This document shows, one piece after another, positions 12,344-30,270 of a DNA stretch of 64,000 bases. A program made the position numbers and the translations under genes. The notes under the pieces are model-generated. The model had not been told where the DNA came from, searched no databases, and saw nothing but the letters and a program-made list of their open reading frames with translations. The stretch is from positions 1 to 64,000 of the IMG/VR virus record IMGVR_UViG_3300015360_003300; one strand, 5' to 3'. Numbering within the stretch: the stretch's first letter is position 1; the number at the start of each line of letters is the position of its first letter. Source of the stretch: a virus.

Positions 12344-12366
12344 TTATATTTTTAGACGGTATTTAT

Positions 12367-12374: not shown

Positions 12375-12393
12375 TACATATGAGGAATCTCCT

Positions 12394-13203: not shown

Positions 13204-13221
13204 CTTAATTAATATTTTTAT

Positions 13222-13257: not shown

Positions 13258-13270
13258 CGTTTATTGGCAA

Positions 13271-13298
13271 TTGACTTTGTTATGTTATTAAATATAAT
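13271..13298 (+). promoter_or_regulatory. Sigma70-type promoter of thyA, probably leaderless
   Basis: TTGACT (13271-13276) and TATAAT (13293-13298) are separated by 16 bases. The thyA ATG begins 7 bases after the -10, where transcription would start, and no Shine-Dalgarno sequence is present. Confidence 0.6.
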
Positions 13299-13304
13299 AA
13301 TGAT

Positions 13305-14279: not shown

Positions 14280-14291
14280 CAAAGGAAAAAA

Positions 14292-14561
14292 ATGAGATAC
14301 GACCCAATAAATATAAAACACCGTGATCTTCTCCTAGCACATGCTTCGCTTGATGGCGATGATTGCCCAGTTGATGATTTGATTGACTCTATACCTAACA
14401 TAATATCGTATATACGGTCCCTAGAAGAGTCTGTTAGAGTATATAAAAGCAATAATCAGCAACTATCTTCTGAACTTGCTGATGCTCGTCGGAAGATTAA
14501 TAACATCAAGAGTCAAAAATTCCGTATTGCTAAAAAGCGCGGAAAGACATTACATAACTAA
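14292..14561 (+). CDS. Small coiled-coil hypothetical protein
   Basis: This 89-residue protein follows thyA by 12 bases, with aagga 4 bases before the ATG. Residues ~38-75 form a probable coiled coil (SLEESVRVYKS...LADARRKINNIKS), ending in a basic tail (KFRIAKKRGKTL). No family recognised. Confidence 0.7.
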   Translation: MRYDPINIKHRDLLLAHASLDGDDCPVDDLIDSIPNIISYIRSLEESVRVYKSNNQQLSSELADARRKINNIKSQKFRIAKKRGKTLHN

Positions 14562-14594
14562 TATTAATTAGCTGCTTCCCAAATTGACAATTGA

Positions 14595-14603
14595 TGATAA
14601 AAT
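14595..14603 (+). promoter_or_regulatory. Extended -10 element of the primase gene
   Basis: TGATAAAAT is an extended -10 (TGn plus TAAAAT) ending 5 bases before the primase ATG at 14609, with no Shine-Dalgarno sequence. A TTGACA at 14584-14589 is too close to serve as -35 for it. Confidence 0.3.
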
Positions 14604-14608
14604 AGTAC

Positions 14609-15667: not shown

Positions 15668-15708
15668 TTTTTTCTATTAAAATATTATATAATTAAATAG
15701 GAGAAATT

Positions 15709-16764
15709 ATGAAAAAGGCTTTTTTATCTGGCACAAATGGACAAGACGGATCATATCTTGTAGAATTACTATTAGAAAAAGGATATGAAGTTCATGGAAT
15801 TGTACGAAGATCATCAGTTTTTAATACACAACGAATAGATCATTTGATAAATAATCCTAAAATTTTTAATAAAACGTTTTTTACTCATTATAGTGATGTA
15901 ACTGATCCCGTAAGTTTAAATAACTTAATGTCTACAATAAAACCCGACGAAGTTTATAATCTTGCGGCACAAAGCCACGTTAAAGTGAGTTTTGAGATTC
16001 CATATTATACTGGTCAAGTTGATGCCATAGGAACACTTAATATTCTTGAAGCGGTTAAAACAAACTGTCAAAATGCTAAAATATATCAAGCATCTACTTC
16101 GGAACTATATGGCGGGCTAGAGTATAATATGCCAAAGGGTGGATATACAGAAGAGTCACCATTTCATCCACGATCACCTTATGGTGTTGCTAAAATTTAT
16201 GCATTTTGGATAACCAAGAATTATAGAGAAGCATATAATATGTTTGCGTGTAATGGAATATTATTTAATCACGAATCACCTCGTCGTGGTGACACTTTTG
16301 TAACAAAAAAGATAACTAATTGGTGTCAGCAACAGTTTTCAAACATTAGAGATAATAAAGAAGTTATACCATTAGAACTTGGAAATCTTGATGCATATCG
16401 TGACTGGGGTCATGCTAAAGATTACGTAGATGCAATGTATCGTATTCTACAACAAGAAAAACCAGATGATTATGTTATAGCAACAGGAGAAACTCACACA
16501 GTAAAAGAATTTATTGAAAAATGTTTCCAAATTGGCAACAAAGATTATAAAACAGATACTAAAATTGAATGGCAAGGTATTGGTGATAATCAAAAAGGTT
16601 ATTTAGATAACAAATTAGTCATTAAAGTAAACCCTAAATATTATCGTCCATCAGAAGTAGAATATCTTTTAGGAAATCCAAAAAAATCTAATGAGAAACT
16701 TGGTTGGATTCCTAGTTACACCTTTGAGACACTTGTCGAAGACATGATGAAAATAACTTTATGA
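15709..16764 (+). CDS. gmd: GDP-mannose 4,6-dehydratase
   Basis: This 351-residue SDR enzyme would convert GDP-mannose to GDP-4-keto-6-deoxymannose, the branch point to fucose, colitose and perosamine. The glycine motif is GTNGQDG (8-14); the catalytic set is S129-T130-S131-E132 followed by L-Y-G-G, and Y158-G-V-A-K162. Family signatures R-R-S-S-x-F-N-T, F-H-P-R-S-P-Y and H-E-S-P-R-R-G are all present. Length is typical (about 345-370). It starts the deoxysugar island with a good ribosome site (aggaga). Its stop overlaps the next start (ATGA). Confidence 0.95.
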   Translation: MKKAFLSGTNGQDGSYLVELLLEKGYEVHGIVRRSSVFNTQRIDHLINNPKIFNKTFFTHYSDVTDPVSLNNLMSTIKPDEVYNLAAQSHVKVSFEIPYYTGQVDAIGTLNILEAVKTNCQNAKIYQASTSELYGGLEYNMPKGGYTEESPFHPRSPYGVAKIYAFWITKNYREAYNMFACNGILFNHESPRRGDTFVTKKITNWCQQQFSNIRDNKEVIPLELGNLDAYRDWGHAKDYVDAMYRILQQEKPDDYVIATGETHTVKEFIEKCFQIGNKDYKTDTKIEWQGIGDNQKGYLDNKLVIKVNPKYYRPSEVEYLLGNPKKSNEKLGWIPSYTFETLVEDMMKITL

Positions 16765-17372
16765 AATATACAAACGAAGAACTTGAACAAATTTATAGTA
16801 AAGGTATGGACTATAAAATACAACAAAAAAAACCAGAATGGATGTGTTTATTAAATCTTCTAAATTTAAAAAATATAGACAATATTTTGGAAATAGGTGC
16901 CAATACGGGAGGTAGTACAGTAACTTTATCACACTTTGCGAAGAAACTTGTAACAATTGACGTTATAAACCCACCATTATTTGATACTAACTCTATTAAT
17001 AAATGCGAGTACAAATATTTGGCTGGAAATAGTCAGAGTGAAGATATGTTTGAACAAGTTAAAAAAGAATTTAACCAAGTTGATTTTCTTATGATAGATG
17101 GTGATCATTCACACCAAGGATCATATAATGATTATCTCATGTATAAAAATTTAGTAAGACCTGGTGGTATGATAGCATTTCATGATATTATTGATTCTCC
17201 AAACCATCATATGCTCAGATGCTTTGTTGCAGATACATGGAAACTTGTTAAAAATGACCATAAAAATTTTAAAGAATTCATATATACCAATGATTTAACT
17301 CCACAAACACTTTCTGAAGCATATCATGAACCGTATTCGTGGGCTGGTGTTGGTGTGGTATATGTGGATTAA
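16761..17372 (+). CDS. Class I SAM-dependent methyltransferase (Methyltransf_24/CmcI-like)
   Basis: In this 203-residue protein, motif I is L-E-I-G-A-N-T-G-G (43-51), the SAM-binding glycine loop with Glu44; an acidic strand ends with T-I-D (~66); the F-L-M-I-D-G-D-H-S-H-Q-G segment (~107) is characteristic of the CmcI/rhamnosyl O-methyltransferase group, in which Asp and His residues bind a metal. The location in a sugar operon, overlapping gmd, suggests O-methylation of a sugar or glycan. The acceptor is unknown. Confidence 0.85.
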   Translation: MKYTNEELEQIYSKGMDYKIQQKKPEWMCLLNLLNLKNIDNILEIGANTGGSTVTLSHFAKKLVTIDVINPPLFDTNSINKCEYKYLAGNSQSEDMFEQVKKEFNQVDFLMIDGDHSHQGSYNDYLMYKNLVRPGGMIAFHDIIDSPNHHMLRCFVADTWKLVKNDHKNFKEFIYTNDLTPQTLSEAYHEPYSWAGVGVVYVD

Positions 17373-17375
17373 ACT

Positions 17376-18122
17376 ATGAAGGACTGTGTAATATATGCTG
17401 CGTGGTTAAATGATGACAGTTTAAATGAACTTTATATATCAACTATATCACGACTTAATGATTGTGATTTTTATGTTGGATTTAATCATTCTACAAGTAA
17501 AAAATTCATAGAATTGTGTCATAAAACATTACCAATTATTTCATCAAAAATATGCGATGTCGAATTAGAGGTTAATTCAGATGCATCTGCATATCAAGCC
17601 GCCTTACAGTGTTATAAAGATACGTGCAAGGAAAAATACAGGAATGTGTATTTTATACACAATAAGGGGGCGTCACATTTCCATGTAAATTACATAAATG
17701 AATATCTTGTTAAATTTATTAATTTACGTAATGAAGTTAATGAGAAACTAGAAACATATGGTGGTTTCTGTATATATGGAAGCATTAACCATGATATGTC
17801 AAAAGCATGGAATGATTTAATAAAAGACACGGCAAAGTTTACATATGAAAAACCATTGGATATAATATGGTGGTGTACTATATATGCTATAAAAGCTGAA
17901 ATAGTTGATTTATACATTAATAATATAAAAGATGATTTTTTTAAAACAAAATTAGACAGGTATTTTTTTGAAGCATCTTTTCCACTTATTGTAGATAAAT
18001 TTGGATTTACTAGATATACGCAAATTTTTTGGGATGTTCCAGTAAAGTTTTCAATCGAACTCTTACAACAAAAATTAAAAGAATATAACGACATTAATAA
18101 ACTTTCTTGTATAATTAATTGA
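17376..18122 (+). CDS. Hypothetical protein, possible glycosyltransferase
   Basis: This 248-residue protein lies between the methyltransferase and the GDP-fucose synthase family gene, 3 bases after the former. Weak features include an N-terminal strand pattern (DCVIYAAWLND), a central Y-F-I-H-N-K-G-A-S-H segment and many aromatic residues, as found in capsule and rhamnan biosynthesis glycosyltransferases. I see no DxD or clear nucleotide-binding motif, so the assignment rests on the neighbourhood. AT content is at least as high as in the flanking genes. Confidence 0.6.
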   Translation: MKDCVIYAAWLNDDSLNELYISTISRLNDCDFYVGFNHSTSKKFIELCHKTLPIISSKICDVELEVNSDASAYQAALQCYKDTCKEKYRNVYFIHNKGASHFHVNYINEYLVKFINLRNEVNEKLETYGGFCIYGSINHDMSKAWNDLIKDTAKFTYEKPLDIIWWCTIYAIKAEIVDLYINNIKDDFFKTKLDRYFFEASFPLIVDKFGFTRYTQIFWDVPVKFSIELLQQKLKEYNDINKLSCIIN

Positions 18123-18123
18123 T

Positions 18124-19056
18124 ATGAACAAAGACGCTAAAATAGCAGTAATGGGTGCATTAGGACTTGTTGGTAAAGCACTATCAGATAATCTAAAAAA
18201 AAGTGGTTATACATCTGTTTTACAGATAACACGAAAAGATGTAGATTTAACAAATCAATTAGATGTTGATAATTGGTTCAAAAATAATAAACCAGAATAT
18301 GTTTTTTTAGCGGCAGCAAAAGTCGGTGGTATTTTTGCAAATAACGCATATCCAGTAGATTTTGGATATATAAACGGCATGATAGAATTAAATGTTCTTC
18401 ACTGTGCCCATAAATATGAAATAAAAAAATTATTATTTCTTGGAAGCTCATGTATCTATCCTAAATTTTCACAACAACCAATTAAAGAAGAATATTTAAT
18501 GTCTGGTTCATTGGAACCAACAAATGAAATGTATGCTTTAGCCAAAATATATGGATTAAAATTATGTCAATCGTATAAAAAACAGTATGGATGTAACTTT
18601 ATAAGTTGCATGCCTACAAATTTATATGGTCCACATGATAATTTTTCTCAAGAAAGCGGACATGTAATACCATCTTTAATTAATAAATTTCATTTTGCAA
18701 AAAATAATAACACAAATGTTACATGTTTTGGAACAGGATCTGCTTGTCGGGAATTTTTATATATAGACGATATGGCAGATGCTTGTATTTTTTTAATGAA
18801 TGTATATAATGAACATGATACTATAAATGTCGGATACGGTACTGATATATCTATATCTGAACTTTCAAATTTAGTTAAACATATTACTAAATTTACAGGC
18901 GATATAAAATGGGACACTACAAAACCTGATGGTATGGCAAAAAAACTTCTAGACTCATCAAAAATAAATAGTCTTGGATGGCACGCAACCACTACGCTTG
19001 TAGATGGTCTAACAAAAACATATAATTGGTTCGTTAATAACAAGGCATCCTCATGA
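18124..19056 (+). CDS. GDP-L-fucose synthase family (Fcl; or GDP-colitose synthase ColC)
   Basis: This 310-residue SDR epimerase-reductase has glycine motif GALGLVG (11-17), the catalytic serine in G-S-S-C-I-Y-P (S108/S109, Cys110) and Y137-A-L-A-K141. The family stretches L-E-P-T-N-E, N-L-Y-G-P-x-D-N-F and H-V-I-P-S-L-I are all kept. Fcl makes GDP-L-fucose from the Gmd product; the homologous ColC does the same two steps on the ColD product to give GDP-L-colitose. Because a ColD homologue is encoded 1 kb downstream, either role is possible. The stop overlaps the next start (ATGA). Confidence 0.88.
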   Translation: MNKDAKIAVMGALGLVGKALSDNLKKSGYTSVLQITRKDVDLTNQLDVDNWFKNNKPEYVFLAAAKVGGIFANNAYPVDFGYINGMIELNVLHCAHKYEIKKLLFLGSSCIYPKFSQQPIKEEYLMSGSLEPTNEMYALAKIYGLKLCQSYKKQYGCNFISCMPTNLYGPHDNFSQESGHVIPSLINKFHFAKNNNTNVTCFGTGSACREFLYIDDMADACIFLMNVYNEHDTINVGYGTDISISELSNLVKHITKFTGDIKWDTTKPDGMAKKLLDSSKINSLGWHATTTLVDGLTKTYNWFVNNKASS

Positions 19057-19859
19057 TAAATATATTATTATGGTCTAAAGATAGGGCTGCCCAACTAGAT
19101 TTAACACTTCAGTCATATAAGAAATATTTTAAAGATTGGGATAAGCAAACGTTAAATATTTTATATAAATGTTCATCTGATGACTTCATAAAATCTTATG
19201 ATATTTTGATGAAGTATCATCCAGAGTTTAATTGGGTTAATGAAAAAGATTTAGTAAAACAAACAAAAGAACTTATATTTAACACAGACCACTTATATGT
19301 ATCATTTATTGTAGATGATGATGTATTCATTGATTATTTTTCAACATCAGATTATGAATTTAAAGAATTCACTACTAACAATGACATAGCATGTTTGTCA
19401 TGTAGGTTGGCACCATATATTAATTATTGCTATACGGCAGGAATGCCCCAACCAGCACCTGATATTAAAGATGGAATATGGGAATGGTGTAATAAACCAT
19501 ATGATTGGGGATACCCAGCCTCATTATCAGCCTTTCATGTCTTCAGAAAACAAGACGTATCTTTTTTAAAAGATATAAATTTTAGAGGTGTTAATACATT
19601 TGAAGCTCAGTTTGATAGTATGTTTTCTCGTAATAGAACAAAAATGATATGTTATAATCAAGCTAAGTGTATATGTGCAACAAATAACAGAGTTCAAATG
19701 GAAAATGCCAATAAAAACGAAAACTCACACGACATATATGTATTAAATAATGCCTTCTTGTTGGGAAAAAGGTTAAGTACTAATGTTAACGACAAGGCTA
19801 CTATTAACATGTGTCATTCACCGATGAAGTATATATTTGAGGAAAATTATGGAAATTAA
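19053..19859 (+). CDS. Probable GT-A glycosyltransferase
   Basis: This 268-residue protein begins with I-L-L-W-S-K-D-R-A-A-Q-L-D-L-T-L, the start of a GT-A fold in which the D-R/A-x-Q helix follows strand 1, and has a V-D-D-D-V-F segment (~89-94) as the DxD metal/nucleotide site. C-terminal residues are rich in Asn/Lys. It overlaps fcl at its start and the ColD-like gene at its end, so it is part of the same operon. The donor could be one of the GDP-deoxysugars made here; this is inferred from context only. Confidence 0.7.
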   Translation: MINILLWSKDRAAQLDLTLQSYKKYFKDWDKQTLNILYKCSSDDFIKSYDILMKYHPEFNWVNEKDLVKQTKELIFNTDHLYVSFIVDDDVFIDYFSTSDYEFKEFTTNNDIACLSCRLAPYINYCYTAGMPQPAPDIKDGIWEWCNKPYDWGYPASLSAFHVFRKQDVSFLKDINFRGVNTFEAQFDSMFSRNRTKMICYNQAKCICATNNRVQMENANKNENSHDIYVLNNAFLLGKRLSTNVNDKATINMCHSPMKYIFEENYGN

Positions 19860-21024
19860 ATATCCGTTAGCAACATCTACGTGGTCTGATGATGAAAAAC
19901 TTGCCGCTAAATACGTCATTGATACAGGTAACTGTACAATGGGAAAAATAACACAAGAACTTGAAATTAAATTTGCAAATAAAATGGGAGTTAAGTATTC
20001 CGTGTTTTCTAACTCTGGAAGCTCTGCAAATCTTCTAGCAGTTGCTGCAATGTTTTATAAAAAAGATAATCCACTTAAACAAGGTGATGAAATACTCGTT
20101 CCGGCCATATCATGGGCCACTACTTATTATCCACTTCAACAGTATGGTTTAAAATTAAAGTTTATTGATGTATCAAAAGAAGATTTTAATATTAACATAT
20201 CAGATATAGAAGATGCAATAACTGAAAAAACTAAAGGAATTTTTGCTGTTAACTTACTTGGTATGCCATGTAATTACAAAGCGTTAACCGATATATGTAA
20301 AAAACATAATCTTGTTCTACTTGAAGATAATTGTGAAGCAATGGGTGGAACTTATAATGGCAAACAATTAGGTACATATGGTGATATTGGTACATATAGT
20401 ACGTTTTTTTCGCATCATATTTGTACAGTAGAAGGTGGCTTTTGTACAACTAATAACGAAGAATTGTATCATATTATGATATCATTGCGGGCACATGGAT
20501 GGATTAGAAATCTACCAGATATTAATCATGTTTATAATAAGTCAAAAAATAACTTTGAGGATACATTTAAATTTGTTTTACCTGGATATAATCTTAGACC
20601 AAATGATATATTTGCAGCCATAGGTCTATTACAGATAGATAAACTAAATACGTTTGTAGATAGCCGTCGTAAAAATTATAGATATTTAAAACAAAAGCTT
20701 GATGATTTAAAATTAGATTGGATTAGTATTCAAGATAACCAATTATGTAATGATGAGTCATCGTGGTTTGGATTTGGGTTTACTACAAAAGATAATATGC
20801 TTAAACCAATTATTGATGCTCTTTCGTTTGCTAATATTGAATTTCGACCTATAGTTGCTGGTAACTTTACAAAAAATCCAGTTATAAAATATATGAACTA
20901 TACTATACACGGTGATTTACCAAACACACAATTTATTGATAAAGGCGGATTCTTTATTGGTAATAATGGAGAAGATATTAGCCCTCAAATTGATCACTTT
21001 ATTAATATACTAAGGAAAATATAA
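19849..21024 (+). CDS. ColD-like GDP-4-keto-6-deoxymannose 3-dehydratase (PLP enzyme)
   Basis: This PLP protein (391 residues) is of the DegT/DnrJ/EryC1 fold. The start at 19849 is preferred to 19837 because gagg lies 6 bases upstream. The internal-aldimine lysine of aminotransferases is replaced by histidine: the segment S-H-H-I-C-T-V-E-G-G has His189/His190 where ColD has His188. Further ColD-like stretches include L-R-A-H-G-W-x-R-N-L-P, F-K-F-V-L-P-G-Y-N, S-S-W-F-G-F and E-x-R-P-I-V-A-G-N-F. ColD removes the 3-hydroxyl of GDP-4-keto-6-deoxymannose using PLP and glutamate, on the way to GDP-colitose. RfbH-type CDP-sugar dehydratases share the His, but gmd alongside favours ColD. Confidence 0.85.
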   Translation: MEIKYPLATSTWSDDEKLAAKYVIDTGNCTMGKITQELEIKFANKMGVKYSVFSNSGSSANLLAVAAMFYKKDNPLKQGDEILVPAISWATTYYPLQQYGLKLKFIDVSKEDFNINISDIEDAITEKTKGIFAVNLLGMPCNYKALTDICKKHNLVLLEDNCEAMGGTYNGKQLGTYGDIGTYSTFFSHHICTVEGGFCTTNNEELYHIMISLRAHGWIRNLPDINHVYNKSKNNFEDTFKFVLPGYNLRPNDIFAAIGLLQIDKLNTFVDSRRKNYRYLKQKLDDLKLDWISIQDNQLCNDESSWFGFGFTTKDNMLKPIIDALSFANIEFRPIVAGNFTKNPVIKYMNYTIHGDLPNTQFIDKGGFFIGNNGEDISPQIDHFINILRKI

Positions 21025-21710
21025 TGAGAATATTAACGTGTATTTTTTCATATAATACAAAAAGTTTTACAGAAAGAATTCTTAACGAGTTTAGTAAGTC
21101 GGATGATCATGACATTATAGTTGTAGATAATAGCTCAATAAAAGAACAGATTCCTCTATGTGAAAACTTAAGATATTTAGGCGAAATAAATGTTGAATTT
21201 GGTGGCATGATGGATTCTGTTCTAACTGATACTGAACTATTAAATAAATATGAATTTATTGGGTTCTTAAATAATGATACTTTTGGTTGGAGTAACGATC
21301 ATATTATAAAAATGCGACAAATAGTAAATGAATCAATTGGAATTTATCATCATTCAATATCACCGGAATATGATAAAAGTGCTAGAACACTTTGGCCACA
21401 TACTAATACGCTAAGATATGTTAATGAAATAGAAAACGTGGCTCCATATTATAATACAAATCTTCTCAAAACTTTTAGTAAATATTGTCCTGTTCAGAAA
21501 CATGGTTTAATTGATGTTGCTATTTCTGGTGTGTGTAGGGACATAAATCTAAAACAAGTTATAGACGATAGAATATCTATACACCATATGCGTAGTGGAA
21601 CCAGAAAAGAAGTTGGAAGTTACAATAATTATATTAATACTGCGGGTATTGACCTTGAACGTTGGCAAGTTCAGTTTCCAGAACTTAGAAAATATAATTT
21701 ACATCAATAA
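21024..21710 (+). CDS. Probable glycosyltransferase
   Basis: This 228-residue protein is coupled to the ColD-like gene by TAATG overlap. It opens with a strand I-L-T-C-I-F-S-Y-N as in GT2 enzymes, has I-I-V-V-D-N-S-S (~32-39) and a late acidic F-L-N-N-D-T (~84-89) at the DxD position. This is the last plus-strand gene of the island and ends 1 base before the end of the converging minus-strand gene. Acceptor and donor are unknown. Confidence 0.65.
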   Translation: MRILTCIFSYNTKSFTERILNEFSKSDDHDIIVVDNSSIKEQIPLCENLRYLGEINVEFGGMMDSVLTDTELLNKYEFIGFLNNDTFGWSNDHIIKMRQIVNESIGIYHHSISPEYDKSARTLWPHTNTLRYVNEIENVAPYYNTNLLKTFSKYCPVQKHGLIDVAISGVCRDINLKQVIDDRISIHHMRSGTRKEVGSYNNYINTAGIDLERWQVQFPELRKYNLHQ

Positions 21711-21711
21711 T

Positions 21712-22512
21712 TCATAAATCCACTAAAATTCTACTTATATTTTGATAAAAATCAGAATAATATAATGCTTTATTGAAATTATATTCTATTATATCTTTAT
21801 ATGTAGCATATGATTCATTAGTTAGTGTATTTAATTTTTCTTTCAATATATCTATATTATCATCATCCAAAATAATCCATCCTGTAGTATTAAAAACATT
21901 ACTTATTGACGGATCGCCATAATATACAGGTATAGTTCTACAAATTAAACAATCAATTATTTTTTCAGTAAACCAATTATCACATCTATTATTTTCTATT
22001 ACTAATGAATATTGATATTCAGAAAATAATTTTACTTTTGAACCAAATAGAACCTCGTTGTGATATTGGTTAATACCTCCTTCGTTACCACTTCTATAAC
22101 AACACAAAAAAGGTATTTCTTTTTGTGTATGTAAAATTTTCTGTCTAAATGAATGACCTGGAGCAAAGTTTTTTTGACCTATTAAAGTAGACATTTTAAA
22201 TTTTTTCATAAGAACATTTATATTGTTATATTCGTTTTGGTTTATCCAAGACGATCCAAAATAATACATTCTAGAATTTTTACATTCTCTCAATAATTGA
22301 GGATCGTAAGTAAAAACAAAATCGTATTTTTTCCAATTACTAAGTAAATAGTCTTTATCATTATATATACAATCTGGTTCAATGCTAATGTATATGTTTA
22401 AACCACCATCTTTTAATGGTGCATTAATATCATCACATATAAAATGTATTTTTTTTCCGATGTTTTTAAATTTTGAAATGTCCATCCAACTATTGGTGGT
22501 ATAATTATCCAT
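21712..22512 (-). CDS. GT10 family fucosyltransferase-like protein
   Basis: This 266-residue protein carries the C-terminal GT10 alpha-fucosyltransferase signature: Y-S-L-V-I-E-N-N-R-C-D-N-W-F-T-E-K (~168-184), followed by a leucine-rich helix and I-P-V-Y-Y-G-D-P (~194-201). In this family the E-N and T-E-K residues bind GDP-fucose. The N-terminal half corresponds to the acceptor domain and is divergent. It fits the GDP-fucose/GDP-colitose enzymes encoded opposite. It overlaps the upstream minus-strand gene by 8 bases, so these form an operon. Confidence 0.85.
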   Translation of the reverse strand: MDNYTTNSWMDISKFKNIGKKIHFICDDINAPLKDGGLNIYISIEPDCIYNDKDYLLSNWKKYDFVFTYDPQLLRECKNSRMYYFGSSWINQNEYNNINVLMKKFKMSTLIGQKNFAPGHSFRQKILHTQKEIPFLCCYRSGNEGGINQYHNEVLFGSKVKLFSEYQYSLVIENNRCDNWFTEKIIDCLICRTIPVYYGDPSISNVFNTTGWIILDDDNIDILKEKLNTLTNESYATYKDIIEYNFNKALYYSDFYQNISRILVDL

Positions 22513-23275
22513 TATTACACCATTCCCATGTTTGTATATATTTAATTAAATCACCAGAACTCATTGCAGATACCTTATCAAATTCTAATTTATTTAAATT
22601 TGTATTGATATTTGGCGAACTATTTATTAGTCTGTCATGACTAATATGATATAAATGACCATCACTTCTACCAATTCTTCCGCCTAGTTTACTAGTTCTG
22701 TTTACTCTTTCATTATCTTCATATCCCCACGACAAGAAATTTTCATTTTCCATTCCTAAAGAAATAAATTTATTTCTATTCCAAAATATAGCACCACCAA
22801 CAGATGAAGGATGGTTTATATTGCAATCTTTTAATAGTATTTGATCAAAATTATAGTTACTAGTGTACATAATATCTATATATTTTTTTGGTACCTCATA
22901 AAAAATACCAGCATATGGAAAAACCATGTCAAATTTATCATCACGAAGAAGTTGCACCGCTTCAAATATATGTTTTTGTTTAAATAATACATCACAATCA
23001 TAATTGGCGATATATGGTGTTGTGCTATTTTTAGCACACACATTTAAACATTTTGTTCTATGAAACATCACATTAGATGACGGTATGTGAATATATTGTG
23101 TTCTCGGATAATCTTTCACATATTCAAATTTTTTATCTTCAGATTCTTCACACACAACTATATTTATTTTAAAATGAGATGTAAAATATTTTAATACACA
23201 ATTCATATTATTAATACGATCATCTGTATCATATCTAACTGGTATATTCAGAGTTACATCCATTAAATCTATCAT
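22505..23275 (-). CDS. GT2-like glycosyltransferase
   Basis: This 256-residue protein has a Y-D-C-D-V-L-F segment (~92-98) giving the DxD site, S-V-G-G-A-I-F-W (~159), and then a G-M-E-N-E-N-F-L-S-W-G-Y-E-D segment (~172-185) typical of GT-A enzymes with a galactosyltransferase-type C-terminal region (acceptor/catalytic acid E-D). Second in the minus-strand trio. The first residue pair could be M1 or M5 (MIDLMDV). Confidence 0.8.
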   Translation of the reverse strand: MIDLMDVTLNIPVRYDTDDRINNMNCVLKYFTSHFKINIVVCEESEDKKFEYVKDYPRTQYIHIPSSNVMFHRTKCLNVCAKNSTTPYIANYDCDVLFKQKHIFEAVQLLRDDKFDMVFPYAGIFYEVPKKYIDIMYTSNYNFDQILLKDCNINHPSSVGGAIFWNRNKFISLGMENENFLSWGYEDNERVNRTSKLGGRIGRSDGHLYHISHDRLINSSPNINTNLNKLEFDKVSAMSSGDLIKYIQTWEWCNNG

Positions 23276-23301
23276 AATAAAGTTCCTTAATTATATTTTA
23301 G

Positions 23302-24123
23302 TTATTTATGATTTTTCCAAAAATTTTCTGCTTCTTCTATTTTTGAATCAAGATTATCCCGTACAACACCACCAACAGAATCTCGCTGACATACCATATG
23401 TTTCCATTTAGCATATAATTCATCATTTTCTTCGGGATGTATGATTGCAATTGAATCAGACATCTGATGACTAAATCCCTTTGTATAAGCATCAACTAAT
23501 AGATAAGCATCATCACCGGCATATATTGATAATTGACGATATCCACCAACAGATTCCCAGCAATTTTTTGATATGAATAAGCAACCGCCTGCTATACCAC
23601 TAGGTGCGTTCGGGTAAACAATATTTTCAGTTTGTCCAAGTCCGTTATCATATGTAAATTGATTTTCATAACATATTTTCCAGTGACAATTAGCACCCAA
23701 TTGATTTAAAGAAACCATACCAAAAGGTTTTCTTGTATATGTTGGAGATTCGGTTGCTAATTTTTCAAGTCGTTCAACCATTCTAGTTGTATCACTAGGA
23801 AAAAGAATATCAGAGTCACATGTCAATATATACTTATATTGTACATTTTTTTCTCTTACTGTATTGTAGAGTTTATTAACAACAACAGCTTTTCCGTAAT
23901 TTCTCTCAAATCTTAATAATGTTATCTTATTTTTAGAGTCTCTTGAATTAACTAAATTAACAAACTGATTCCAATACTCATCTGGACACCAACCACCAAT
24001 AGCGAATTTGATATCGTATTTATAGGTATCACAATACTTAAAGAAACTAGTCAATGACTCCCAGTTTCTCTCAAAACGCTTCTTATCTGGTGCAAATATA
24101 GGCTGAATGAAAATAGTGTCCAT
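23302..24123 (-). CDS. GT2 family glycosyltransferase
   Basis: This 273-residue GT-A enzyme has T-C-D-S-D-I-L-F-P (DxD, ~101), P-S-G-I-A-G-G-C-L-F-I (~169-179), and Y-A-G-D-D-A-Y-L at the usual E/D-D catalytic position. It is the first gene of the minus-strand trio, with aggag 10 bases upstream and TATAAT further up. It faces a late-promoter-driven gene on the other strand. Donor unknown. Confidence 0.85.
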   Translation of the reverse strand: MDTIFIQPIFAPDKKRFERNWESLTSFFKYCDTYKYDIKFAIGGWCPDEYWNQFVNLVNSRDSKNKITLLRFERNYGKAVVVNKLYNTVREKNVQYKYILTCDSDILFPSDTTRMVERLEKLATESPTYTRKPFGMVSLNQLGANCHWKICYENQFTYDNGLGQTENIVYPNAPSGIAGGCLFISKNCWESVGGYRQLSIYAGDDAYLLVDAYTKGFSHQMSDSIAIIHPEENDELYAKWKHMVCQRDSVGGVVRDNLDSKIEEAENFWKNHK

Positions 24124-24209: not shown

Positions 24210-24617
24210 ATGTCATTTAAACATTTTTATAAAGTAACTTTTACCGAATCAGAAGTTAAAATTATCCTTGAAACACTCAATGAATCCCGCTGGTGGGGGA
24301 AGTTTAAGGAAGAAGCATCTATTGTTGCGTATAAAACCGAAGATAATAAGATGAGACAATTTAGAGCATGGAAAATGCAAGAAGATGGAGGCCCAACATA
24401 CGTCGTTGAGGCACGTAAGGGTCTTAGATATGGACTTTACCGCACTACAGACGATAAATTTATATGTGCTCGGCTCAAGCCTGGTAAAAAGAACATTATT
24501 AAACCAAAGGGTATATTCCAAGAAGTAGATGGGAAACTTGTATTTGAACTTTTTAAACTTCCTACAATAATAGCACAAAATGCTTCTAAAGGTGTTCAAC
24601 GGGACGCCCAGGCATAA
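24210..24617 (+). CDS. Hypothetical late protein with candidate capsid-targeting N-terminus
   Basis: This 135-residue basic protein is the first gene behind a T4-type late promoter. It starts MSFKHFYK and has I-L-E21 and L-N-E25 followed by Ser, compatible with the (L/I)-x-E cleavage rule of the T4 gp21 prohead protease. Similar short N-termini occur on later genes of the block. The rest (RQFRAWKM...TYVVEARKGLRYGLYRTTDDK) is a strand-rich basic domain with no family recognised. If processed, about 110 residues would stay in the head. Confidence 0.7.
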   Translation: MSFKHFYKVTFTESEVKIILETLNESRWWGKFKEEASIVAYKTEDNKMRQFRAWKMQEDGGPTYVVEARKGLRYGLYRTTDDKFICARLKPGKKNIIKPKGIFQEVDGKLVFELFKLPTIIAQNASKGVQRDAQA

Positions 24618-24622: not shown

Positions 24623-25708
24623 ATGAGTCTTTTACAGAGTCATAAATTTCTTATTGAAGGTGGTAAGGCGGCTGAAAAGTTGCTTCCACAGTTACAGAAA
24701 CATTCTAAAGTACCACTCACATATACAAAAATATCTCAAAAAGATATTGGTACCGTTTTTGACACTACGGTAGATGAAATTCTTAACACTCTTAAAGCTA
24801 ATAAACTTATTGCGCATGATTATCAACCTAAATATACATTAGGTTCAACTCGTTTGGCAGCTGATATAGCAGGAAAACCAGTATCTCGTTATGCACACGA
24901 GGATCCAAATATAGTAGCAGCTGCTACTATAGCCAAGAATGAATTTGGTGACTTGGATATAGATATTGAATTGATTAATAATAAAACTATGAAGGATGTA
25001 GTAGCAGTTATTTCTAAACTAGATCCAACTAGAATGGCAGTTAATGATGCTGGTATAGAAGCTAATGTTGCCGCCCGTATTAACGATAAAATTATTCAAA
25101 TTGATATTGTTAACATGGGTAATAATCGTCAACACATGGAATTTCAACAGTCTAGTAGTTATGTTGATACTGCACAGAATATTAAGGGAATTATCCATAA
25201 GATATTCATATCATGTATAGTACAGACTCTCCCGTTCACACAAGATGATAAGATTAAACTTGCAGACATAATTAAGAATCATTCAGATATTCAAAAGTGG
25301 ACATCAAAAGGATACATACTTACTAACATGGGTCGATTTCTCCTTGGACCAAAAGGACTTCGTATTGTAGTTGATATGGAGAAAGACGAAGTTAAAGGAC
25401 GTAAAACGATTGACCTTGAAGATACAAATCGTGTATCATCCGATGATCTTGATAAGCTTGCACAAGTCATCATGCAAGACAAATCGGTTACGAAAGATGT
25501 TATGTTTAGTGCTGTAAAAATGGCCGAGTTTGAACAACAAAAGCATCCCGAACGAGTTAAAGATATATGGTCTATGTTTGTTGATAAATTACAATATGCT
25601 ACACAAACTGGTGGAGTAGGTAATAAAGATGCTATAAATGCATTCAACGTTATCGGAAAACATCTTGGTATAAAACCAGAACTAATTCAAAAAGCTATTA
25701 AAGGATAA
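24623..25708 (+). CDS. Possible nucleotidyltransferase-fold protein
   Basis: In this 361-residue protein, L-G-S-T-R at 73-77, G-D-L-D-I-D-I-E at 109-116 and I-Q-I-D-I at 159-163 match the order of the polymerase-beta-type nucleotidyltransferase core (GS, DxD, third Asp), though the gap between GS and DxD is long. The second half is helical and uncharacterised. The N-terminus MSLLQSHKFLIE followed by Gly matches an L-x-E protease site. It lies 5 bases after the previous gene and 2 before the large fusion protein. The substrate is unknown and the fold assignment tentative. Confidence 0.6.
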   Translation: MSLLQSHKFLIEGGKAAEKLLPQLQKHSKVPLTYTKISQKDIGTVFDTTVDEILNTLKANKLIAHDYQPKYTLGSTRLAADIAGKPVSRYAHEDPNIVAAATIAKNEFGDLDIDIELINNKTMKDVVAVISKLDPTRMAVNDAGIEANVAARINDKIIQIDIVNMGNNRQHMEFQQSSSYVDTAQNIKGIIHKIFISCIVQTLPFTQDDKIKLADIIKNHSDIQKWTSKGYILTNMGRFLLGPKGLRIVVDMEKDEVKGRKTIDLEDTNRVSSDDLDKLAQVIMQDKSVTKDVMFSAVKMAEFEQQKHPERVKDIWSMFVDKLQYATQTGGVGNKDAINAFNVIGKHLGIKPELIQKAIKG

Positions 25709-25710: not shown

Positions 25711-28700
25711 ATGTCATTTAACGAATTTTATGATTCAACGATAAGCGAAAAGAAGTTGTCAATTCAACGTTTTAGTGGTTCTAATGAAATGTCAGACACT
25801 CAACTACTTAAGTTTCTTCATCAGTTACAAGGCATAGCCGCTAAAGGTACTATTGATTTAAGTACAAATGATAAAGTTTCTATGACAGAAAAGTTTGATG
25901 GTTCGCCCGCAAATTGGGGTCTTAACCCAGAATTCTTTATGGAATCTGCCAATTCTGGAGAAGTAACTTCGTCTAATATTGAAAAATTTAACAATCCATA
26001 TACAATTCATTTTTATAAAGCATTCAAGTTCTTATCTGAATACAAACCATTCCTTGATAGACTCAAAAAGGCACAAAGTTACGCTGATGAGCCTGTTAAG
26101 TTCACGTCAGAAATGTTTCCAGTATTAACACATAAAGGTAATGATTGTGGTGATTTTATTTTCTGTTCAACAAAATATAATAAGAGTAAGCTAGGTAACT
26201 CTGGTGCCTTTATGATATTTGATGTGAGTGTTAAACATGGAGATTCGTGGGTGGAAGCCAATGAAGATATTCACGAAATACTTATTGATATTGTACGTAC
26301 TCCCGAAGATCCTGAATGGAAGGTCTATTATGCTGATCGTGATGGTAAACTCAACGGTACTTTACAATTTGAATTCTCTGGAATCAATGATTGGATTTCT
26401 AGTCCAACGAAACTTGCATCATCTGTTGCTCTTTTAAAGAATAAAAACGATCCTAATACAAAGAACCTTAAGGATCTTATTCAAAAGATACGACCAGGAC
26501 TTCAACAGCAACTTGATGCATATGCTGAAAATACATCATCTAGTCTTGGTAATGCTACAGGCAAGTCTCCGATTGAAGGAGTGGTTCTAAAAGTTAACCT
26601 ACCCACGGGTCCAACGTTCATCAAAGGAACCTCACAAATATTTCATGATATAGCATCTGGTACATGGGGAACTCGCAAGGAACTTGGCGCAATTGAAAAG
26701 ACATTGACCGGTCAGTTCCTTAAAGATGTTATTGGTTTAAGAACAGATCAACCAGCTGCATTGAATAGAGCAATTGCAGAAATTGGTAAGACGTTTCAAA
26801 GTGATAAGCAAGGTGAAGAAAGAACTAATGTTTTTGTAGACGAGCTTCGTAAAAAATTACAAACTGATGGCTCATCAACGACAGATATTATTGCTCGTAC
26901 AAAAGCCAAGCAGTATCTTGATGTTGCTAATAAGCAACTTAATGATATTGAACAGAAATGGCAACAGACACTTACTACTGTAGATCCAGATACTATTGAT
27001 AAGACCGAAAATCAAATGGCTTATACAAAGGAAATGTTAAAGAAACTTCAAAGTCGCATAGTAGATACCGAATATATTGGTGATGCATATATGGTCTATT
27101 TGCTTCGGATGATCATCGGTAGGCGCATTGAAAATTATATCAATAACGACTCTAATGTCGGTGAAATTGATGAACTTAATAATAGTATTGGTGAAGAAGA
27201 ACTTAACGAACTTAATGTGACGGCTCTTACTACCAATCTTATAACAAAATTAAAAGATTTAATAGTTAAAAAACCACAACCACAACTTCCAAGCAAACGT
27301 CCAACTGATGATGATCTTAGTGATATAGATTTACAAATTCATCCATCTACACATGCAGTAAACGATATAGATTTCGCGAATATTCAAGACCAAGATCCAG
27401 AATGGAATCAAAAGGTAAAAGGTTACGTTGTAAAAATTCTAAAACTTAATAATATATCAGATGAAAGTATTAACAATTTATTAGTTAAGTTTGATAAAGA
27501 TCCTGATTCTGTTGCGAAAAGAGTATTAGATAAATTTGGCGGTAATTTACGAGATATTCGTGATCAACTACGCGGACATGATGAGACAGATAAAAATATA
27601 AGAGATGCAAAAAAAGGGAAATTGCGAGCATATTTACGCGGGGATACCGACGAATTAGACGAAGAAGCAAGTGAAGAATTCGACGAATATGAGATTCTTG
27701 ATGAGCGCAAATTTGAAAAAGTAAAAATGGCTCGTAATGTTCTTTCAAAACTAGGACATCCTAAAGCATATGATCGCAATGATGATGGTAAGTATATTCT
27801 TCGTTCCAAACATATTAAAAAGTTAATGAAAAAACTTAACTATATATTTAGTGATGAAAAATCGAGGTGGATTATGGATACACAAGAACCAATATCTAAA
27901 CCAGAAAAAACTTCTGTAGAGCCAATAATTACAGAACCGTCTGTTGATAAAACTCCAAATGTTATTACATCTGAAAAGAATGCTATAATTTGGATTGGTC
28001 GCGCTCAGCCTTGGCATAAGGGACATGATGTTCTTATACAAAAAGGACTTGAAAAACTTAAAGAAGTCGGTGCTAACATGATATTTATTATGCTTGTTAA
28101 AGGATCAATTACAAGTATGGATGTAAACAAGAATCCTATGGATTTTGATGCCCAAATAAAGTTAATTGGTGATGTATATGAGAAAGAACAAGCAGTTGAT
28201 ATTAGTAGCTTACCAGTAGCCACCGGATCAATTGTTGATATTCTTGTAACTGCATCAAAACAAGGAATTATTGTTAAGGGTTGGCTTGCTGGAAGTGATC
28301 GTATTGCTGGTTATCAGGAACAGTTTAAAACCTTCAAAACAGATAAATATAAAGCAGAATTTCAACAAAAAACTTCTCTTGCTGCGCAATATCCGCTTGA
28401 CGGTGATATCACATTTATTGATGTGGGACGTGAGGAAGAATCTACTCCTAAACCAACAACAAAAGACGCCAAAGAACTAGCTAATGCTGATAAAGTTGCT
28501 AAACATGATGCTATGGCAGTTAAAGCCAAATCAGTAGACACTCCAACAATTTCTACTGAACATATGAGTGGCTCGCTCGCAAGATCATTAGTTACTAAAC
28601 TTGACTTTGATCATTGGTTTAAAGAAGTATGTCCCCTAAAATATACTTCTTCAAAGTCTGCTAAGTTAGGATACCAAGAAACATATGATATACTTGGAGG

Positions 28701-28785
28701 GAAAGAAAAAAATGAAGTACTTGAGACATATTTTGAAACAAAATCACTTAGAGAAAGTTTATCAAATATATTCTTTAGAGAGTAA
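25711..28785 (+). CDS. Ligase-like nucleotidyltransferase fused to NMNAT-like domain (1024 aa)
   Basis: The N-terminal region has the covalent nucleotidyltransferase motifs of ATP ligases and capping enzymes: K61-F-D-G64 (motif I), S-E-M-F (~133), G-A-F-M-I-F-D-V (~165), E-G-V-V-L-K (289-294, motif IV) and F-I-K-G (303-306, motif V). A long charged helical middle (~380-740) follows. The C-terminal region (~750-1000) is HIGH-type: G-R-A-Q-P-W-H-K-G-H (~763-772) and a late S-G-S-L-A-R at the I-S-x-x-x-x-R position, as in nicotinamide-nucleotide adenylyltransferases. The start MSFNEFYDSTISE resembles a capsid-targeting peptide with an I-S-E site. Two NTP-using activities in one late protein is unusual. 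Confidence 0.75.
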   Translation: MSFNEFYDSTISEKKLSIQRFSGSNEMSDTQLLKFLHQLQGIAAKGTIDLSTNDKVSMTEKFDGSPANWGLNPEFFMESANSGEVTSSNIEKFNNPYTIHFYKAFKFLSEYKPFLDRLKKAQSYADEPVKFTSEMFPVLTHKGNDCGDFIFCSTKYNKSKLGNSGAFMIFDVSVKHGDSWVEANEDIHEILIDIVRTPEDPEWKVYYADRDGKLNGTLQFEFSGINDWISSPTKLASSVALLKNKNDPNTKNLKDLIQKIRPGLQQQLDAYAENTSSSLGNATGKSPIEGVVLKVNLPTGPTFIKGTSQIFHDIASGTWGTRKELGAIEKTLTGQFLKDVIGLRTDQPAALNRAIAEIGKTFQSDKQGEERTNVFVDELRKKLQTDGSSTTDIIARTKAKQYLDVANKQLNDIEQKWQQTLTTVDPDTIDKTENQMAYTKEMLKKLQSRIVDTEYIGDAYMVYLLRMIIGRRIENYINNDSNVGEIDELNNSIGEEELNELNVTALTTNLITKLKDLIVKKPQPQLPSKRPTDDDLSDIDLQIHPSTHAVNDIDFANIQDQDPEWNQKVKGYVVKILKLNNISDESINNLLVKFDKDPDSVAKRVLDKFGGNLRDIRDQLRGHDETDKNIRDAKKGKLRAYLRGDTDELDEEASEEFDEYEILDERKFEKVKMARNVLSKLGHPKAYDRNDDGKYILRSKHIKKLMKKLNYIFSDEKSRWIMDTQEPISKPEKTSVEPIITEPSVDKTPNVITSEKNAIIWIGRAQPWHKGHDVLIQKGLEKLKEVGANMIFIMLVKGSITSMDVNKNPMDFDAQIKLIGDVYEKEQAVDISSLPVATGSIVDILVTASKQGIIVKGWLAGSDRIAGYQEQFKTFKTDKYKAEFQQKTSLAAQYPLDGDITFIDVGREEESTPKPTTKDAKELANADKVAKHDAMAVKAKSVDTPTISTEHMSGSLARSLVTKLDFDHWFKEVCPLKYTSSKSAKLGYQETYDILGGKEKNEVLETYFETKSLRESLSNIFFRE

Positions 28786-28787: not shown

Positions 28788-28994
28788 ATGGCATTCATTA
28801 AGAAATTTAGAAACGGGAAGATAGTGGATTCAACTGTGTCTGCTCCTATACAACAGCCACTTCCAGTGCCTATACCTATACCGGTTCCCCAACCACCAAC
28901 ACCAACAGTGCCTCCACATCAAATTACATCACCTACACCACCATTACCGAAAGTAGTACCTCGGCGTGGTGGTTGTGGGTGTGGAAAGAAATAA
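28788..28994 (+). CDS. Small proline-rich protein with Cys-Gly tail
   Basis: This 68-residue protein starts 2 bases after the fusion gene and its stop overlaps or abuts the next start. Residues ~20-58 are alternating Pro/Val/Ile/Thr (PVPIPIPVPQPP and similar), extended and disordered; the C-terminus is R-R-G-G-C-G-C-G-K-K. No family recognised. The Cys pair could bind metal or form a disulfide. Confidence 0.65.
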   Translation: MAFIKKFRNGKIVDSTVSAPIQQPLPVPIPIPVPQPPTPTVPPHQITSPTPPLPKVVPRRGGCGCGKK

Positions 28995-28995
28995 T

Positions 28996-30270
28996 ATGAG
29001 TTTTTACAATTTTTTCTCAGAATCGTTAGCTCTTTCTGAAGCATCAAAGTTCAATGCTGGCGATGCTATGGAAGGCATTTTTGCTATTGGTGTGGCTTTA
29101 TATATTGCTGATGGTAAAATTAATAAAGATAAATTAAACACGATTCGTAAGCAAGTTATTATTTCTTCTAAAGAATCTTTCACACAAACTATAGATTCAA
29201 ACATTGCGGATGATGGGTGGATAGCTAACAAACTACCACACATTCAACCTGGTAATAAACTTGCGGTCAAAGTCATCATTAATTTAAAAGCAACTGCTAA
29301 AGATGCATTTGGTCCAAAATCAAAACAAATTCCTGATATTGAAAATACAATTCATCAGATGGTAAATCAGATTGCTAATACAAGTGCAATTAAGCGCATT
29401 GAAAAGTTCATTGTCCAAATTCTAACAAATCACACACCTGATAATGTAATATTCTATGTGGTGGCTGACGGTTCTCAAACAGGACAAACTGGCGACCAGA
29501 TTAAAGGTGATGTTATGTTGCGTGTTGAAGCAAAAACTAATACACCAATTCCCATCGATATAGAAAAATCTATTAAATTCTCTGTCAAGACTGACACATC
29601 AACAACATCTGGTCTTGGAATTTTTACTGGTGTACTTCGTATCGGAAACTTTTTTGGATTACCATTTACAAAAGGTCTTGAGAAAATGACTTCATTTCCT
29701 AGAGTTGGTGGGTCTGCGACTAATAAAGTCGTTGATATGATTAGGACTAGTTATCGAACGCAATCAGAAGACCCAAATCATCTTATATTTTATGTTCAAA
29801 GATACATAAATTTACAAAACAAAGTATATAATTTTAATCCATCAGATGATATACCAAATATAGATGTTGCTAAGCAAAAAGTTATGGAAGCTGGATGGGT
29901 TATTATTCATAGAGCAACAGAAGAACTTGAAAATCAACTTAAAGTAAAAGATGCTACATATGACTTTACAACCCGTACATTTAATTTTTTAGAAAAAGAA
30001 ATTTTTGGATCAGATGATGCTGAAGTTATTCGTTTGCTTCCCGGGTCAATAAGTGAAATTTCAAAAGAAGATTTTGCTGTGATTAAAAATAGATATATCA
30101 CAGAATTCGCAGTAGTGGGTGACGATATGAAGTTCATCGGTGTAGATAAAGAAACTAATAAACGCGATCTTTTATTTTCTCTTATTCCAGAAAATAGAAT
30201 AACTCCTTCAGAAACAGTATTTAGATTTGATGTCAAGCTTGGACCTATTTTTTACAAACAAGTAACATAA
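28996..30270 (+). CDS. Hypothetical late protein with candidate capsid-targeting N-terminus
   Basis: The ATG at 28996 is preferred over the in-frame ATG at 28966, which lies inside the preceding gene; the product is 424 residues. It starts MSFYNFFSESLALSE followed by Ala, an exact L-x-E site, and resembles the other N-termini of this block. The body alternates strands and helices with no motif I recognise; a Ser/Thr-rich segment (TDTSTTSGLG) lies near 205. It is the last gene of the block; the RNR promoter follows. Confidence 0.7.
   Translation: MSFYNFFSESLALSEASKFNAGDAMEGIFAIGVALYIADGKINKDKLNTIRKQVIISSKESFTQTIDSNIADDGWIANKLPHIQPGNKLAVKVIINLKATAKDAFGPKSKQIPDIENTIHQMVNQIANTSAIKRIEKFIVQILTNHTPDNVIFYVVADGSQTGQTGDQIKGDVMLRVEAKTNTPIPIDIEKSIKFSVKTDTSTTSGLGIFTGVLRIGNFFGLPFTKGLEKMTSFPRVGGSATNKVVDMIRTSYRTQSEDPNHLIFYVQRYINLQNKVYNFNPSDDIPNIDVAKQKVMEAGWVIIHRATEELENQLKVKDATYDFTTRTFNFLEKEIFGSDDAEVIRLLPGSISEISKEDFAVIKNRYITEFAVVGDDMKFIGVDKETNKRDLLFSLIPENRITPSETVFRFDVKLGPIFYKQVT

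What the first reader, a model, noticed from the sequence alone, without database searches (positions are those of the whole stretch)
25711..28785. 1024-residue fusion of a ligase/capping-type nucleotidyltransferase and an NMNAT-like domain
Seen: K-x-D-G at 61-64, E-G-V-V-L-K and a later F-I-K-G in the N-terminal third; H-K-G-H and a terminal S-G-x-x-x-R in the C-terminal third. Established: the first set marks covalent adenylyl- or guanylyltransferases, the second NMN adenylyltransferases; phage NMNATs can restore NAD+ depleted by host defence (NARP2). Inference: nucleic acid end repair coupled to NAD+ chemistry, possibly counter-defence, active from the moment of injection if packaged.
Basis: partly seen in the sequence, partly recalled or inferred. 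Interest (0 to 1): 0.75.

Follow-up and report, generated by a model that had tools for sequence, protein, structure and literature searches.

The report
Virion-targeted phage ligase–NMNAT-like fusion protein
A marine T4-like virus of bacteria makes one protein that joins a nucleic-acid-ligase-like enzyme to an NAD-making-type enzyme; it belongs to a set of three nucleotide-transferring enzymes that these viruses probably load into their heads, trim with their head protease and inject into the host cell, perhaps to repair broken RNA at once.

Summary
The ORF and every motif cited are present, are rarely or never reproduced by residue shuffling, and recur in a close relative (L013) with the same architecture. 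Residues 15–345 are an Rnl2/capping-type covalent nucleotidyltransferase domain (motifs conserved in nine members; weak but family-specific RNA_ligase hits). Residues 753–1024 are an NMNAT-like HIGH domain.

The upstream gene 24623–25708 has the motif pattern of a pol-β nucleotidyltransferase. In other phages the three domains are fused as polβ–ligase–HIGH (L033) or HIGH–polβ–ligase (six loci), or lie as adjacent genes (Stenotrophomonas and Xanthomonas phages); cyanophages have DUF6267 next to 'cytidyltransferase'.

In seven fused proteins, 15 of 17 T4-type head-protease sites ([LI]xE|[AGS]) fall at domain borders or the N-terminus. The polβ gene starts with such a leader, relatives encode the protease, and the cyanophage HIGH homologue is a virion protein by published mass spectrometry. 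Packaging, cleavage and injection are therefore likely but inferred.

Most likely role: injected nucleic-acid (RNA) end repair with NAD+ or adenylyl supply. NARP2 is not supported: no NAMPT in eight records. Activity is untested; AlphaFold models were low-confidence.

The parts
24210..24617 (+). Small gene of unknown function (135 aa) at the head of the operon; leader-like N-terminus MSFKHFYKVTFTE|SEVK
   Evidence: ORF; orthologue in L013 7335-7997 has the canonical MSFKHFFSTHLTE|S. The window copy has F at P3, so its site is non-canonical.
24623..25708 (+). Pol-beta-superfamily-like nucleotidyltransferase gene (P0003, 361 aa), partner of the fusion
   Evidence: GDLDI (109-113) and QID (159-161) are invariant or nearly so in an alignment of seven proteins from marine, Stenotrophomonas and Xanthomonas phages; fused to the ligase and HIGH domains in L033 and in the C-type loci. 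No Pfam NTase or RlaP hit: assigned by motif and synteny.
24623..24658 (+). Leader of P0003 ending in a T4-type head-protease site: MSLLQSHKFLIE|GGKAAE
   Evidence: The only ORF of 54 in the window with [LI]xE[AGS] in its first 25 aa; same place in L013 (LLLE|GGN), L033 (LLLE|GGK), and at the HIGH/polB border of six fused proteins.
25711..28785 (+). The finding: 1024-aa ligase-like + NMNAT-like fusion (P0001)
   Evidence: orthologue L013 9088-12354.
25711..25749 (+). Leader-like N-terminus MSFNEFYDSTISE|KK (I-x-E but Lys after it)
   Evidence: Equivalent border in the relatives: IGE|A, LEE|A, INE|G, LGE|A, LTE|D, VYE|K, LNE|G.
25753..26745 (+). Ligase/capping-type covalent nucleotidyltransferase domain, residues 15-345; Lys61 at 25891-25893
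   Evidence: Motifs I, III, IIIa, IV and V conserved in 9 members; PF09414 RNA_ligase weakly hit by 6 of 9 and at 5.8e-4 in a six-frame search of a relative; fold matches.
26746..27150 (+). Conserved helical domain C-terminal to the ligase (residues 346-480)
   Evidence: Present in window, L013 and the C-type loci; helices with pLDDT about 80 in the model.
27151..27966 (+). Linker (481-752): 481-640 poorly conserved (31% to L013); 641-725 a small conserved domain (76%) with ...LDERKFEKVKMARN...SRWI
   Evidence: Not seen in L033 or the C-type loci.
27967..28782 (+). NMNAT-like HIGH-superfamily adenylyltransferase domain (753-1024); HKGH 28015-28026, SGSLAR 28567-28584
   Evidence: phrog_3041 E 5e-11; profile vs PDB 2qjt NMNAT 4.1e-7; homologues in Stenotrophomonas and Xanthomonas phages.
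28999..30270 (+). Downstream gene (423 aa; ATG 28999 is the likelier start than GTG 28966), leader MSFYNFFSESLALSE|A, possible D...SxK nuclease-like protein
   Evidence: L013 orthologue starts MGFKSFFTEAMLIDE|A. The nuclease idea rests only on a D..SxK pattern shared with neighbour genes in S-SM1, Ps15 and X1; no family hit.

Best explanation
P0001 is one piece of a three-enzyme nucleotidyltransferase module of T4-like phages: a pol-beta-like NTase (gene upstream), a ligase-type covalent nucleotidyltransferase (residues 15-345) and an NMNAT-like HIGH adenylyltransferase (residues 753-1024). Step 1 (inferred, about 0.7): the proteins enter the prohead through N-terminal leaders and the head maturation protease cuts after (L/I)-x-E, releasing the leader and, in the all-in-one versions, separating domains. 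Step 2 (inferred): the enzymes are injected with the DNA, as T4 internal proteins are. Step 3 (inferred, about 0.3): in the cell they repair nucleic-acid ends, most likely RNA such as host-cleaved tRNA. The pol-beta enzyme would restore lost nucleotides, the ligase would form an AMP adduct on Lys61 and seal, and the HIGH domain would make NAD+ from NMN and ATP, or do a related adenylyl transfer. The module and its domain make-up are shown; packaging is supported; the substrates are a proposal.
For: Three-part module: upstream polB, one-protein fusions in two orders, four adjacent genes in Stenotrophomonas phage Ps15 and Xanthomonas phage X1, DUF6267-cytidyltransferase neighbours in cyanophages. 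Ligase. HIGH. Processing: 15 of 17 [LI]xE[AGS] sites at the N-terminus or domain borders of seven fused proteins, each protein P<=0.011 by shuffling; L005, L008, L015 and L033 have exactly two sites each, all at the N-terminus or borders. The residue between L/I and E varies while L/I and E stay. The protease (phrog_207 5e-55; Peptidase_S77) is encoded in three related records, and major capsid proteins there carry the same motif before the mature part. T4 ipII/III, gp22, gp23 and gp24 show it too. Cyanophage HIGH homologues start MKKFSxF[LI]xE|A, and T4-GC190 is in S-SM1 virions (PMC3037559); S-SCSM1 and S-CREM2 likewise. PolB-RNA-ligase teamwork in phage RNA repair is a described theme (RlaP, PMC7824862).
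Against: No activity data. Both AlphaFold models of the ligase domain are low-confidence (pLDDT 62 and 55), and PDB fold matches are above E 0.2. PF09414 scores stay below its cut-off. P0001's own leader site is followed by Lys (ISE|K) and its closest relative has VYE|K, both off the consensus; no canonical cut site separates ligase from HIGH in the window version. The seven fused proteins are related, so the site statistics are not independent. The window record is a 71.5-kb fragment without the protease gene. DUF6267 itself was not reported in the virion data I could read. HxGH is degenerate (GPHH) in C-type loci and L033 has KxDA in place of KxDG, so not all copies need be active. No KptA or RlaP family member in the records.
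Confidence: 0.5

Rival explanations
1. NAD+ restoration as counter-defence: the HIGH domain is an NMNAT that refills NAD+ drained by host NADases (NARP2-like), and the ligase part is secondary.
For: Closest solved relatives are NMNATs; intact GRxQPxHKGH and SGxxxR; NMNAT-like virion proteins are proposed to raise NAD+ early in infection (PMC9602691).
Against: No NAMPT/NAPRTase in eight records, including a 168-kb one, whereas PMC9503650 states that every phage with NadM also has NadV. It does not explain the constant company of polB and ligase domains.
Confidence: 0.15
2. DNA-end or nick repair: the injected set acts on phage DNA (polymerase + ligase + possible nuclease, NHEJ-like), with the NMNAT-like domain recycling NMN if the ligase uses NAD+.
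For: PolB + ligase + possible nuclease neighbours; PDB fold matches include DNA ligases at the top ranks, though not significant; the module belongs to DNA-injecting virions.
Against: Pfam and BFVD matches point to RNA ligases rather than DNA ligases; no Ia (NMN-binding) domain was recognised; the fourth gene's nuclease nature is unproven.
Confidence: 0.15
3. Host-protein or metabolite modification: polB and ligase-like domains act as injected effectors that nucleotidylate host proteins, as suggested for polB NTases in polyvalent proteins.
For: Injected multi-domain 'polyvalent proteins' with polB NTases are described as protein-modifying (PMC5512222); T4 Alt is an injected modifier.
Against: No protein target known; the full set of ligase motifs is conserved, including SEMFP and EGVV.
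Confidence: 0.12
4. Nucleotide-sugar metabolism: the HIGH domain is a cytidylyltransferase for phosphosugars, linked to the glycosyltransferase cluster next door.
For: PMC7824862 reads cyanophage HIGH enzymes that way; the window has a sugar cluster at 5-24 kb.
Against: The HIGH profile matches NMNATs better than other solved transferases; in other loci the module sits by terminase or baseplate genes; virion presence is odd for a sugar enzyme.
Confidence: 0.08

Closest known systems
T4 RNA ligase 2 (Rnl2, gp24.1) / Pfam PF09414 RNA_ligase
   Same: Order of motifs I (KxDG), III, IIIa, IV (EGVVLK vs Rnl2 EGYVLK) and V (IKGTSQIF vs IKCKNSKF); weak Pfam hits in 6 of 9 members.
   Different: Below the Pfam cut-off; no hhalign match to Rnl2 as a single sequence; insertions between motifs; second Lys of motif V missing; fused to an NMNAT-like domain.
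DUF6267 (PF19782), T4-GC 71 of cyanophages
   Same: KxDGxPA..G.NP..FF context (hhalign pairwise E 1.8e-4 over 27 columns); EGxV and K motifs; gene lies directly before the HIGH 'cytidyltransferase'.
   Different: P0001 does not hit PF19782; the rest of the domain does not align; separate gene, no fusion.
Cyanophage 'cytidyltransferase' T4-GC190 / phrog_395, phrog_3041
   Same: HIGH domain; leader MKKFSxF[LI]xE|A; found in virions by MS (PMC3037559, PMC9602691, PMC10665884).
   Different: Not fused to the ligase; TxGH/TVGH-type instead of HKGH in those read.
Archaeal-type NMNAT (NadM), PDB 2qjt, 1f9a, 2qjo
   Same: GRxQPxHxGH, NP motif, SGxxxR.
   Different: VKGxxTSxDxxKNP in place of the archaeal GSAQxSHTxxNP; no Nudix domain; long insert before SGSLAR.
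T4 internal head proteins (IPI-III, Alt) with capsid targeting sequences
   Same: N-terminal leader ending (L/I)xE|(A/G/S), cut by the head protease, protein injected (PMC9026906; sequences).
   Different: Here enzymes, several in one chain, with additional sites at the domain borders.
Polyvalent proteins (PMC5512222)
   Same: Several unrelated enzyme domains in one phage protein, thought to be packaged and injected.
   Different: No combination of ligase, polB and HIGH domains is described in the passages read; processing here would be by the T4-type head protease.
RlaP-RNA ligase repair pairs (PMC7824862)
   Same: PolB NTase working with an RNA ligase.
   Different: PF10127 does not match any of the eight records.

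Membership tests
PF09414 RNA_ligase / Rnl2-like ligases | Motif I KxDG with nucleotidyl-accepting lysine | tested here: met
   Lys61; K invariant, KxDG in 8 of 9 members, KMDA in L033.
PF09414 RNA_ligase / Rnl2-like ligases | Motif III glutamate, motif IV EGxVxK, motif V lysine | tested here: met
   SEMFP, EGVV(L/M)(K/R) and KGTS invariant or nearly so; the second K of KxK in motif V is absent.
PF09414 RNA_ligase / Rnl2-like ligases | Score above the curated cut-off | tested here: not met
   Window member: no hit; 6 of 9 members hit at E 0.011 or weaker; G002 15.5 bits, 5.8e-4, against a 27-bit cut-off.
PF09414 RNA_ligase / Rnl2-like ligases | ATP-grasp/RAGNYA fold | tested here: inconclusive
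   Low-confidence models; first model's fold search uninformative; second model: 4 of the top 9 BFVD matches are RNA ligases, plus LEF-4; ligases rank high but not significantly in the PDB.
PF09414 RNA_ligase / Rnl2-like ligases | Adenylylation of Lys and strand joining | not testable with these tools
   Needs enzymology.
NMNAT (NadM-type HIGH adenylyltransferase) | GRxQPxHxGH and C-terminal SxTxxR-like motif | tested here: met
   GRAQPWHKGH and SGSLAR; G, R, Q, P, H, G, H and the S...R pair invariant in 5 relatives.
NMNAT (NadM-type HIGH adenylyltransferase) | Closest solved relatives are NMNATs | tested here: met
   2qjt 4.1e-7, 1f9a 5.9e-5, 2qjo 8e-5; PPAT only from 0.005.
NMNAT (NadM-type HIGH adenylyltransferase) | NAD+ synthesis from NMN + ATP | not testable with these tools
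   Substrate not deducible from HIGH motifs alone.
NARP2 (NAMPT + NMNAT) | Partner nicotinamide phosphoribosyltransferase | tested here: not met
   PF04095 absent from the window record and seven related records; most are fragments.
DUF6267 (PF19782) | Pfam match | tested here: not met
   No hit for P0001, while S-SM1 gp189 scores 1.6e-91; only a 27-column profile match.
T4-type internal head proteins | N-terminal targeting leader ending in (L/I)xE|(A/G/S) | tested here: inconclusive
   Met for P0003, gene 28999-30270, L013 neighbours and L033; P0001 itself has ISE|K.
T4-type internal head proteins | Head maturation protease in the same phage | tested here: inconclusive
   Present in three relatives; window record is a fragment without the head genes.
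T4-type internal head proteins | Presence in purified virions | not tested
   Only for the HIGH homologue, from papers.
RlaP polB NTase (PF10127), for gene 24623-25708 | Pfam match | tested here: not met
   No match in eight records at E<=10.

The most novel reading that the evidence does not exclude
A head-protease-processed polyprotein: T4-like phages pack a pre-assembled three-nucleotidyltransferase repair kit (polB-like NTase, ligase, NMNAT-like) into the capsid, use the same protease that matures the capsid to cut it into separate enzymes, and inject it so that repair of host-cleaved RNA and NAD+ supply begin before any phage gene is expressed.
Probability: 0.35. Interest if true: 0.8.

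Novelty: new variant of a known kind. Interest (0 to 1): 0.62.

Why it matters
Known injected T4 proteins modify or shield host targets; an injected multi-enzyme nucleotidyltransferase set would be a different strategy. The finding would give a function-linked context to DUF6267 (similar genes in 470 phage records) and to the cyanophage 'cytidyltransferase', a long-known virion protein without an established role. The border cut sites make the idea testable by one virion proteomics run.

Tried and rejected
Sequence searches of P0001 and of its ligase part against INPHARED phages gave nothing; likewise the 423-aa downstream protein, and P0003 gave only one chance-level hit. Genome collection: no relative. 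Two AlphaFold runs gave low confidence; fold search with the first was uninformative. Direct hhalign of the ligase family to T4 Rnl2 failed. PDB profile searches for the ligase and polB parts gave only chance hits. NARP2 was considered and set aside for lack of NAMPT; KptA- and RlaP-type RNA repair partners were not found. Hits to RB43-, Cronobacter- and Citrobacter-type NMNAT/Nudix proteins were above E 0.5 and are not claimed as homologues by that test.
Full report
Observation. The window is bases 1-64000 of a 71,549-base virus record. Its other genes are those of a T4-like myovirus: UvsX, DnaB-like helicase, SSB, clamp loader, primase, ribonucleotide reductase and baseplate proteins. Residue shuffles reproduce the ligase motif set 6 times in 20,000 and the HIGH set never.

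Independent copies. The first relative found by protein search (L001) already showed the surprise: a 950-aa protein carrying the same ligase region (44% identity over 475 residues) but at the C-terminus, with a HIGH domain at the N-terminus and a third domain between. Profile searches brought more loci. L013 encodes the same architecture as the window, with 81% identity in the ligase, 61% in the HIGH part and only 31% in the first linker segment. L033 encodes polB-ligase-HIGH as one 1067-aa protein, in the order of the window's two genes. Six loci (L001, L004, L005/L006, L008, L015, L016) have HIGH-polB-ligase.

Domains. (a) Residues 15-345: nine members conserve E-K-x-D, SEMFP, EWK, EGVV and KGTS, which is the motif order of Rnl2-like ligases and capping enzymes. 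PF09414 RNA_ligase is the only Pfam family hit by more than one member (6 of 9, best 0.011); a six-frame search hits this very ORF in L001's record at 5.8e-4. All are below the curated cut-off. AlphaFold models are weak. Even so, four of the nine best BFVD fold matches are RNA ligases, with the capping subunit LEF-4 also listed, and DNA or RNA ligases rank high, though not significantly, in the PDB. (b) Residues 753-1024: PHROG cytidyltransferase families (5e-11, 7e-8) and solved NMNATs (4e-7). (c) The gene 24623-25708: GDxDI, then Q-x-D and G-x-R, invariant in seven proteins, the pattern of pol-beta NTases. No Pfam model recognises it, so this assignment rests on motif and synteny.

The module. 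Stenotrophomonas phage Ps15 and Xanthomonas phage X1 have four adjacent genes: polB, an unknown (D..SxK pattern), a KxDG protein and an NMNAT-like protein. Ps15's KxDG protein matches the ligase profile around KxDG...FxE..SG (E 0.003). In cyanophages DUF6267 (KxDGxPA...EGxV...K) directly precedes the 'cytidyltransferase'; DUF6267 and the window's ligase family share the KxDGxPA..G.NP..FF stretch (E 1.8e-4). Repeated fusion and adjacency of the same parts in different orders is strong evidence for joint function.

Virion targeting. T4's internal and head proteins end their propeptides in (L/I)xE| before A or S (ipII/III MKTYQEFIAE|A, gp22 LIAE|A, gp24 LLRE|S, gp23 FLTE|A), and the leader of IPIII suffices for packaging (PMC9026906). 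P0003 starts MSLLQSHKFLIE|GGK; L013 and L033 have LLLE|GG. In the HIGH-polB-ligase proteins the same LxE|GG stands exactly between HIGH and polB, and a second site stands just before the ligase in most of them. Ps15 and X1, which have no leader, begin with MGGN, so the same mature N-terminus would result. Over seven fused proteins 15 of 17 such sites fall in N-terminal or border windows that make up 5-8% of the length. The sequences are related, so the P values (each <=0.011) are not independent. However, the residue between L and E varies (K, N, Q, E, I, L) while L/I and E stay. The head protease is encoded in three of the relatives, and the major capsid proteins of two of them carry the same motif directly before the mature part. 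The cyanophage HIGH homologue (T4-GC190) has the leader MKKFSAFLNE|A and was found in purified S-SM1 virions (PMC3037559); NMNAT-like or cytidyltransferase proteins were found in S-SCSM1, S-CBWM1 and S-CREM2 virions (PMC9602691, PMC10665884). P0001's own N-terminus (ISE|K) is less canonical, and no canonical cut site lies between its two enzymes.

Function. No activity was tested. The most economical reading is injected end repair: polB NTases and RNA ligases work together in phage RNA repair (RlaP theme, PMC7824862), and NAD+ is another currency of these conflicts (PMC9503650). P0003 is not an RlaP member by Pfam. NARP2 needs NAMPT, which none of eight records encodes. Some members may be inactive: GPHH replaces HxGH in the C-type loci and L033 has KxDA.

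Novelty. Components are of known kinds; the ligase-NMNAT-like fusion, the three-way module and the border cut sites were not described in the passages read (a text search for DUF6267 found no paper). I file it as a new variant of the injected-internal-protein strategy.

Noticed in passing
window 5008-24123: Long cluster of nucleotide-sugar epimerase-like, aminotransferase and glycosyltransferase genes (phrog_540 three times, phrog_3139, phrog_1721), as in phages that make their own glycans.
   Followed up: no
window 28966-30270: The mechanical ORF starts at GTG 28966, but the relative's start and the leader point to ATG 28999.
   Followed up: partly
L033 4702-7905: Ligase motif I reads KMDAS (Gly replaced by Ala) while motifs III-V are intact: possibly altered or lost activity.
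   Followed up: no
L001, L004, L005, L008 N-terminal HIGH domains: HxGH has become xPHH or xLHH (GRFHPAGPHH), though SGTEIR is kept.
   Followed up: no
phage records H30, H32, H119, H13: The cyanophage cytidyltransferase region is annotated as ribonucleotide reductase in several records and the Stenotrophomonas one as 'ADP ribosyltransferase' in phage Marzo: probable annotation errors.
   Followed up: no
L039 1147-1653 (record of L001): A protein with IFGSNSTGFHGAGSAG, resembling macro-like ADP-ribose-binding proteins, near the capsid genes.
   Followed up: no
window 53655-60236 and L001 1532-8131: Very long proteins at the end of the tail region; the L001 one is built of Ser/Thr/Asn-rich repeats (NSSSxAxxIT...).
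   Followed up: no
L009 4616-5062, L012 5582-5998: ParB/sulfiredoxin-like protein with DGHHR downstream of the module and just before the baseplate hub gene in Ps15 and X1.
   Followed up: no
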